Positions 28,252 through 29,454 of a stretch of DNA of 40,721 bases are shown here, one piece after another. Within the stretch, counting starts at the first letter, position 1, and every line of letters begins with the position of its first letter. The notes below the pieces were generated by a model that saw only the letters and a program-made list of their open reading frames with translations, did no database searches and was not told the origin of the DNA. The stretch spans positions 1 through 40,721 of the forward strand of contig JARIFA010000013.1 in the NCBI GenBank assembly GCA_031127075.1, read 5' to 3'. A program made the position numbers and the translations under genes. Source of the stretch: Gemmatimonadota bacterium. Lineage in GTDB: Bacteria; Gemmatimonadota; Gemmatimonadetes; Gemmatimonadales; Gemmatimonadaceae.

Positions 28252-29454
<1,203 letters not shown>

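What the first reader, a model, noticed from the sequence alone, without database searches (positions are those of the whole stretch)
28435..28461. EF-Tu switch I reads KILTI instead of RGITI and is six residues longer
The G2 element RGITI is nearly universal among translational GTPases; fusA in this same window has it. Here tuf has KILTI at residues 65-69 after an insertion-bearing stretch ([10 protein letters not shown]), with only the catalytic Thr and the following Ile kept. Flanking sequence (AYDEVAKA and [21 protein letters not shown]) is in frame and conserved, so this is not a frameshift. Switch I contacts EF-Ts, tRNA and the ribosome in its GTP and GDP forms, so the change could alter nucleotide exchange, GTP hydrolysis timing or sensitivity to EF-Tu drugs and toxins.
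Basis: partly seen in the sequence, partly recalled or inferred. Interest (0 to 1): 0.8.

Follow-up and report, generated by a model that had tools for sequence, protein, structure and literature searches.

The report
A second switch I in EF-Tu
The only full-length EF-Tu gene found in this bacterium's draft genome, a gene essential for making proteins, has a rebuilt GTP-switch loop that also occurs, instead of the textbook loop, in part of several bacterial phyla, apparently swapped as a small piece while the rest of the protein follows its own lineage.

Summary
The P-loop-to-DCPGH stretch has 73 residues against a usual 67: five extra in the effector loop, one just before it. It is not an error: near relatives share it, and it is the only full tuf found in the 81.5%-complete genome.

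It is not unique. The segment ([22 protein letters not shown] or close) matched in 133 of 395 Gemmatimonadota, 29 of 294 Planctomycetota (E <= 2e-8) and 34 of 198 Nitrospirota genomes, and in an alphaproteobacterial MAG. Canonical RGITI was found in 110 of the same 395; one genome held both, by contamination. Planctomycetota also have a shorter K form.

All 125 aligned K-form proteins lack Asp50, Pro53 and Gly59 yet keep Thr61, Ile62, Asp80, His84 and Asp86. Outside the loop, Gemmatimonadota K proteins resemble Gemmatimonadota R proteins, not planctomycete K proteins; a single K5 clade is rejected. I read this as a working alternative switch I that moved as a segment. Matching EF-Ts or 16S changes were not found. 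Biochemistry is untested.

The parts
28252..29454 (+). tuf, elongation factor Tu, 400 aa, the only full-length copy found in this assembly
   Evidence: TIGR00485 EF-Tu equivalog 704.6 bits against a cut-off of 522.4
28315..28329 (+). P-loop core DHGKT (residues 22-26) with the Asp21-equivalent (residue 22) kept
   Evidence: sequence; residue counts
28393..28458 (+). K-form switch I segment [22 protein letters not shown] (residues 48-69), 22 residues against 17 in the canonical form
   Evidence: alignments and locus listings; block identities
28444..28458 (+). G2 element KILTI (residues 65-69) in place of RGITI
   Evidence: G2 census of 252 parsed loci
28510..28524 (+). switch II DCPGH (residues 87-91), catalytic His kept
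28675..28689 (+). G4 region NKCDL (residues 142-146); Leu146 instead of Met/Gln is the best correlate of the K form outside the loop that the column comparison gave
   Evidence: column comparison; L in 111 of 125 K and 6 of 113 R proteins
26087..28204 (+). fusA (EF-G) with canonical RGITI, upstream neighbour in the str operon

Best explanation
The gene is the ordinary housekeeping tuf of a Gemmatimonadaceae bacterium, but its switch I is a natural alternative module ('K form') in place of the canonical FDxIDxAPEExxRGITI segment. Shown: the module occurs in several phyla; in the two phyla where both forms were scanned they exclude each other within a genome; and the rest of the protein does not show one shared history for the K5 carriers. 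Inferred: (1) the module works as a complete substitute. Thr68 would bind Mg2+ and the gamma-phosphate as Thr61 does, Leu67 would serve as the hydrophobic gate of Ile60, Lys65 would stand in for Arg58 towards tRNA and Asp86, and the added GRRDAT stretch, with its acidic residue, would replace what was lost with Asp50, Pro53 and Gly59. (2) The module passed between lineages as a short segment, so that host-type EF-Tu received a foreign switch I. No step of the GTPase cycle has been measured.
For: The 33-residue segment matched in Gemmatimonadota 133/395, Planctomycetota 45/294, of which 29 at E <= 2e-8 are the full K5 form, Nitrospirota 34/198, and an alphaproteobacterial contig (L040) whose neighbouring reading frames, rpsG, fusA and ribosomal proteins by size and place, are nearest to alphaproteobacteria among the loci held. 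Exclusion: K 133 and R 110 of the same 395 genomes, one overlap (G166), whose R copy is 92% identical to a betaproteobacterial EF-Tu and at most 78% to Gemmatimonadota R. Mosaic: over residues 47-69 Gemmatimonadota K5 is 0.82 identical to Planctomycetota K5 and 0.32 to Gemmatimonadota R (gap columns counted as mismatches); outside 47-70 it is 0.718 and 0.787. With residues 42-70 removed, Gemmatimonadota K5 and R group together (bootstrap/SH-aLRT 87/97), K/R needs at least 9 changes, and one clade of all 32 K5 rows is rejected (p-AU 1e-21). Asp50, Pro53, Gly59 lost in 125/125 K, Asp50 and Pro53 kept in 113/113 R; Thr61, Ile62, Asp80, His84, Asp86 kept in all.
Against: Gemmatimonadota K5 joined to the L139/L045 planctomycete K5 clade alone is not rejected at 0.05 (p-AU 0.0635), so whole-gene transfer from such a donor followed by divergence stays possible; joining to L040/L074 is rejected only at 0.015. 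In the careful tree Gemmatimonadota K5 is not even one group (one group in 8% of 200 bootstrap trees), though it is in the quick tree. EF-Tu is so conserved that many branches are weak (26 of 71 starred), and L040 outside the segment is 0.768 identical to both a Gemmatimonadota K and a proteobacterial R protein. Identical codons are no commoner inside the segment than outside (0.493 against 0.525 for Gemmatimonadota-Planctomycetota, 23 chosen sequences), so no recent transfer is visible. Both AlphaFold models leave residues 55-72 below pLDDT 50, so the structural roles are inference. Most loci are MAG contigs and some lie at contig ends, so single same-genus K/R pairs may be binning errors.
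Confidence: 0.58

Rival explanations
1. Whole-gene horizontal transfer: the K-form tuf spread from a planctomycete-like donor into Gemmatimonadota, Nitrospira and others, replacing tuf in place, and the remainder later diverged towards the host type.
For: Gemmatimonadota K5 plus the L139/L045 planctomycete clade is not rejected (p-AU 0.0635). Within Gemmatimonadota K5 genes form one group in the quick tree (SH-aLRT 96), and nearly identical K switch regions occur in two families (L021 of f1 and L022 of f2; L022 lies at a contig end, so misbinning is possible), which would fit whole-gene exchange inside that phylum.
Against: One clade of all K5 rows is strongly rejected. Outside the segment Gemmatimonadota K5 is no closer to planctomycete K5 (0.718) than to planctomycete R (0.713), and closer to Gemmatimonadota R (0.787). 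Nitrospira L074 outside the segment is nearest to proteobacterial and Nitrospirota R proteins.
Confidence: 0.24
2. Ancient paralogy: an ancestor had one R and one K tuf gene; gene conversion homogenised the two copies except at switch I, and lineages later kept one or the other.
For: Two tuf copies are common in these genomes, and in Gemmatimonadota and Planctomycetota the copies in one genome are of one form. Gene conversion has been studied with tuf genes in bacteria (PMC5485169; listing and start of abstract only). It would give the observed mosaic without cross-phylum transfer.
Against: No genome genuinely keeping both forms was found: 0 of 395 Gemmatimonadota after G166 is set aside as contamination, and the K2 and R lists are disjoint in 119 Planctomycetota. 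Nitrospirota were not scanned for R.
Confidence: 0.12
3. The K form was selected as an escape from something that attacks or uses canonical switch I, for example a Lit-type protease, which recall places at the Gly59-Ile60 bond that the K form lacks, or tRNase toxins that need EF-Tu.
For: Lit cleaves EF-Tu (PMC9712102, passage). Lit-like Peptidase_U49 was found in 5 of 346 Gemmatimonadota; three of these are R-form (G031, G209, G312), and the one K-form genome (G140) has a partial match with an in-frame stop. In E. coli EF-Tu, Arg58 to Ala lowers tRNA cleavage with CdiA-CT to about 60% (PMC9071432, passage).
Against: Numbers are far too small: 3 of 110 R against 1 of 133 K, Fisher p 0.33 (the denominators are typed genomes of the 395, while sampled 346 genomes of the phylum). 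The fifth, G029, had no typed tuf. Peptidase_U49 was not sought in the other phyla.
Confidence: 0.06
4. Near-neutral alternative (not exclusive of the others): both modules perform equally and the distribution is historical accident.
For: Three same-genus K/R pairs have the same EF-Ts form (G244/G370, G058/G039, G333/G378), and no clear K/R-consistent base difference was seen in the 16S 5' part among 9 K and 4 R genomes.
Against: Each module is strictly kept within its carriers, and of 16 strains carrying foreign or ancestral tuf genes in E. coli only four of the genes supported growth alone (PMC5574714, passages), which suggests that EF-Tu is not freely exchangeable.
Confidence: 0.35

Closest known systems
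Canonical bacterial EF-Tu (TIGR00485)
   Same: Full-length match, P-loop, Thr61, Ile62, Asp80, His84, Asp86 kept; str-operon position; 704.6 bits
   Different: Switch I 48-69 is the K form: Asp50, Pro53, Gly59 absent, Arg58 to Lys, five residues added
Planctomycete EF-Tu with an 11-residue motif (Jenkins and Fuerst 2001, J Mol Evol 52:405; content recalled, paper not held; citation seen in PMC3444138)
   Same: Probably the same family of switch I: the K2 form reads for example GGTVRDATKTVTI
   Different: Recalled as unique to planctomycetes. Here a longer sister form (K5) is found in four phyla, and many planctomycetes matched the canonical segment (50 of 119)
eEF1A switch I with the alpha2 expansion
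   Same: Extra residues in switch I of an aa-tRNA carrier; in human, alpha2 touches h14 and the SRL coordinates Arg69 of switch I (PMC10156603, passages)
   Different: eEF1A keeps RGITI (recalled), its expansion extends from the N-terminal part of switch I; no homology to the K insert is claimed
Archaeal SelB-like proteins with KGTXX at G2
   Same: A trGTPase relative with a changed G2 element (PMC3037878, passages)
   Different: In those the His of G3 is not conserved; the K-form EF-Tu keeps it and is, by inference, the housekeeping factor

Membership tests
Bacterial EF-Tu (TIGR00485) | Score over the curated equivalog cut-off along the whole length | tested here: met
   704.6 bits against 522.4, residues 1-399
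Bacterial EF-Tu (TIGR00485) | Catalytic and Mg2+ residues of G1 and G3 (Asp21, Lys24, Thr25, Asp80, His84) | tested here: met
   All in the sequence; counts across relatives for Asp21, Thr25, Asp80 and His84
Bacterial EF-Tu (TIGR00485) | G2 element RGITI | tested here: not met
   KILTI here; in 252 parsed loci 119 are RG[ILV]TI and 133 are [KR]xxTI without the Gly (a sample enriched for the variant). RGITI is usual but the family model accepts the protein without it
Bacterial EF-Tu (TIGR00485) | Delivers aa-tRNA to the ribosome with GTP hydrolysis | not testable with these tools
   Inferred: the only full tuf found in this assembly
Planctomycete-type (K2) switch I | RDx[ST]K followed by a hydrophobic pair and TI, with Asp50 and Gly59 lost | tested here: met
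   RDATKILTI; residue counts
Planctomycete-type (K2) switch I | Length of 19 residues from the aromatic residue to TI | tested here: not met
   22 here (K5), 19 in K2 (sequences)
eEF1A-like alpha2 expansion | Extra helix in switch I contacting h14 | tested here: inconclusive
   AlphaFold models have pLDDT below 50 at 55-72

The most novel reading that the evidence does not exclude
EF-Tu switch I is a transferable module: bacteria have mutually exclusive solutions to the GTP-sensing loop of one of their most abundant proteins, and short-segment exchange between phyla has repeatedly swapped one for the other inside an otherwise vertically inherited protein. The K solution re-engineers the nucleotide site (Asp50 and the Gly59 turn replaced by an RD-x-T-K element) and may even relax the need for the P-loop Asp, which is lost only in K-form proteins (3 of 133 against 0 of 119; not significant, p 0.25).
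Probability: 0.4. Interest if true: 0.75.

Novelty: new variant of a known kind. Interest (0 to 1): 0.58.

Why it matters
Switch I of EF-Tu is treated as a fixed element in mechanistic models of decoding, and core translation genes are thought to resist transfer. A natural replacement that lacks three canonical residues, yet appears to serve as the housekeeping factor in parts of several phyla, offers a ready comparison for which contacts (Mg2+ surroundings, monovalent-cation site, tRNA acceptor, sarcin-ricin loop, h14) are needed. It also makes sub-gene transfer in an essential informational gene testable.

Tried and rejected
Sequencing error or frameshift: rejected, the same switch I in independent genomes. 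Second standard tuf in this genome: none found, but the assembly is incomplete. Matching EF-Ts change: of 30 chosen genomes, K 9 long and 7 short, R 3 long and 11 short, Fisher p 0.07 without correction for kinship; three same-genus K/R pairs share the form. Matching 16S change: 5' part of 13 genomes (9 K, 4 R); the 'fixed' columns the script printed are gap columns filled in only some R rows; the h14 stretch was used as the anchor for cutting, so its identity is by construction and is no evidence. Of 26 genomes asked, 12 gave no 16S match and one only a 35-base fragment. Structure: two AlphaFold jobs, switch I not modelled with confidence; no fold search was run. Solved structures: the 30-residue segment matched none in the PDB copy at E 10. 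Plasmids and phages: no match of that segment. Monovalent-cation idea (Lys replacing K+): suggested by passages in PMC4342817 and PMC6310460; no direct evidence here, and PMC4509514 says the ion contributes little to catalysis. Coupling of Leu146 to the K form: only 2 independent pairs on supported branches, so untestable by that method. A count of the Asp50 position and of lengths by regular expression misplaced its anchor and was replaced by alignment columns. Scripts that read switch I out of loci missed several by too narrow patterns and were widened. Rows dropped: proteins under 370 residues, two unparsed loci and exact duplicates before trees and column counts (238 of 243 kept after duplicates); the tree used 118 of the 238, by caps per group, with some rows forced in and the rest drawn at random; the tree used 74 of those 118 in the same way, six long-branch or outlying rows being left out on purpose.

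Full report
Observation. tuf lies at 28252-29454 on the + strand, 400 residues, directly after fusA. The protein passes the EF-Tu equivalog cut-off with a wide margin. The stretch from P-loop to DCPGH is six residues longer than usual: five in the effector loop and one at the end of helix A. The genome (G000, 81.5% complete, 98 contigs) has one full tuf and no match to the canonical segment.

Identity of the organism. The nearest named contig is a Gemmatimonadaceae MAG with 95% identical EF-Tu. Same-genus genomes that yielded tuf are 91-100% identical over the aligned part; some genomes of the genus yielded none.

Distribution. I scanned genomes with a 33-residue K-form segment and, in two phyla, with canonical segments. 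Gemmatimonadota: K form in 133 and canonical in 110 of the same 395 genomes; the rest gave neither, which I put down to tuf being lost at contig breaks in MAGs (not checked one by one). One genome, G166, gave both; its canonical copy is 92% identical to a betaproteobacterial EF-Tu and at most 78% to Gemmatimonadota canonical ones, hence contamination. Both forms occur inside one family (f1) and inside four genera (g24, g27, g44, g128), though several of those tuf genes sit on short contigs or at contig ends. Single-contig or long-contig genomes carry both forms too (for example G011, G070, G078 and G105 K; G069, G101, G102 and G259 R). Planctomycetota: 45 of 294 genomes matched, 29 of them at E <= 2e-8; the other 16 score E 6e-5 or weaker, and those read are other K forms. 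In 119 genomes, 51 matched the K2 segment (two of these, G442 and G486, are K5 genomes with weak scores) and 50 the canonical one, with no genome in both lists. Nitrospirota: 34 of 198 (the canonical form was not scanned there). Of the best 80 contigs of a whole-collection scan, 8 carry the K form: Gemmatimonadaceae, Sedimentisphaerales, Planctomycetota, Nitrospira, Hyphomicrobium and three unnamed bacteria; the other 72 are canonical. On the Hyphomicrobium contig the neighbouring frames (by size and place rpsG, fusA and ribosomal proteins) are nearest to alphaproteobacterial loci among those held; on the Nitrospira contig rpsG- and fusA-sized frames are nearest to a Nitrospirota locus (output partly cut). 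Both genomes have two K copies.

Anatomy. In 125 K and 113 R proteins: position 50 (E. coli-like numbering without Met, taken from a Serratia row) is Ala/Thr in K and Asp in R; position 53 is Ser/Gly against Pro; Thr61, Ile62, Asp80, His84 and Asp86 are invariant in both. In K proteins the residue aligned with Gly59 is Ile, Thr or Val, and the basic residue before it is Lys in 124 and Arg in 1. The G2 strings of 252 parsed loci are RGITI 117, RGLTI 1, RGVTI 1, KILTI 77, KTVTI 32, KIVTI 13, KIITI 4, KVVTI 3, KIMTI 2, KVLTI 1 and RVVTI 1. K2 and K5 share RDx[ST]K in most members, which argues for one origin of the module with a later length change. Asp50 as a holder of a Mg2+-bound water, the Arg58-Asp86 contact and the Lit cleavage site are recalled. 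From passages of papers: Ile60 as gate and the Thr of G2 at the gamma-phosphate (PMC3037878), Arg58 at the phosphate of tRNA nucleotide 2 (PMC9071432), Arg69 of human eEF1A switch I coordinated by the sarcin-ricin loop (PMC10156603; [quoted passage not shown]

History. Between Gemmatimonadota K5 and R proteins mean identity is 0.32 over residues 47-69 (gap columns count as mismatches) and 0.787 outside 47-70; between Gemmatimonadota K5 and Planctomycetota K5 it is 0.82 and 0.718, the latter within the cross-group background of 0.713-0.731. With residues 42-70 removed, the careful tree of 74 rows joins Gemmatimonadota K5 and R (87/97), places Hyphomicrobium and Nitrospira K5 with proteobacteria (98/90), scatters planctomycete K5, K2 and R, and needs at least nine K/R changes; Gemmatimonadota K5 itself falls into two groups there, but into one in the quick tree of 118 rows. 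A single K5 clade is rejected (p-AU 1e-21); Gemmatimonadota K5 with L040/L074 is rejected at 0.015; Gemmatimonadota K5 with the L139/L045 clade is not (0.0635). Codon identity shows no recent transfer. I therefore favour segment exchange, and keep whole-gene transfer and ancient paralogy with gene conversion as rivals. On checking I moved a little weight (0.02) from the first to the second, because of the two groups in the careful tree.

Partners. EF-Ts comes in a long and a short form in this phylum; both occur with both tuf forms, and three same-genus K/R pairs agree in EF-Ts form. The 5' part of 16S shows no clear K/R difference in 9 K and 4 R genomes; the h14 stretch was the cutting anchor and is no test. 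Outside the loop, residue 146 (Leu in 111 of 125 K, 6 of 113 R) tracks the form best among the columns compared.

Prior art. Searches of the held open library (terms on EF-Tu with switch I insertion and planctomycetes, RGITI, signature indels, Gemmatimonadetes, Arg58/Asp50) listed no paper that I recognised as describing this variant; of the listed papers only passages were read (PMC4342817, PMC13351119, PMC3444138, PMC3037878). Recalled, not seen: Jenkins and Fuerst 2001 reported an 11-residue motif peculiar to planctomycete EF-Tu, very likely the K2 form. The variant is therefore probably partly known; its presence in other phyla, the longer form and the mosaic pattern I did not find in print.

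Verdict. A real, conserved, non-unique alternative switch I: a new variant of a known kind. The open question is whether it changes the GTPase cycle.

Noticed in passing
L168, L174 and L175 (Planctomycetota G527, G427, G463): The P-loop Asp (E. coli Asp21), described as universally conserved (PMC5311926, passage), is Ser or Ala in three K-form EF-Tu proteins; 3 of 133 K against 0 of 119 R loci, Fisher p 0.25.
   Followed up: partly
EF-Ts loci L267-L296: Gemmatimonadota have two EF-Ts forms, 12 long and 18 short (middle of the profile missing) among 30 chosen genomes.
   Followed up: partly
L329, L330, L331, L332; G031: Lit-like Peptidase_U49 matches in 5 of 346 Gemmatimonadota; the one in a K-form genome (G140) is partial with an in-frame stop.
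   Followed up: partly
L065 (JAGNMU010000485.1) and G166 contig C16: Proteobacteria-like tuf contigs binned into Gemmatimonadota MAGs (contamination); G409, the genome of L065, has two K-form matches besides.
   Followed up: yes
L040 (Hyphomicrobium MAG, JALHOF010000011.1): Alphaproteobacteria-like contig whose tuf carries the K5 switch I; a second K5 match lies about 18.6 kb away on the same contig.
   Followed up: partly
window 28687-28689: Leu146 right after the NKCD motif tracks the K form (111 of 125 K against 6 of 113 R); reason unknown.
   Followed up: partly
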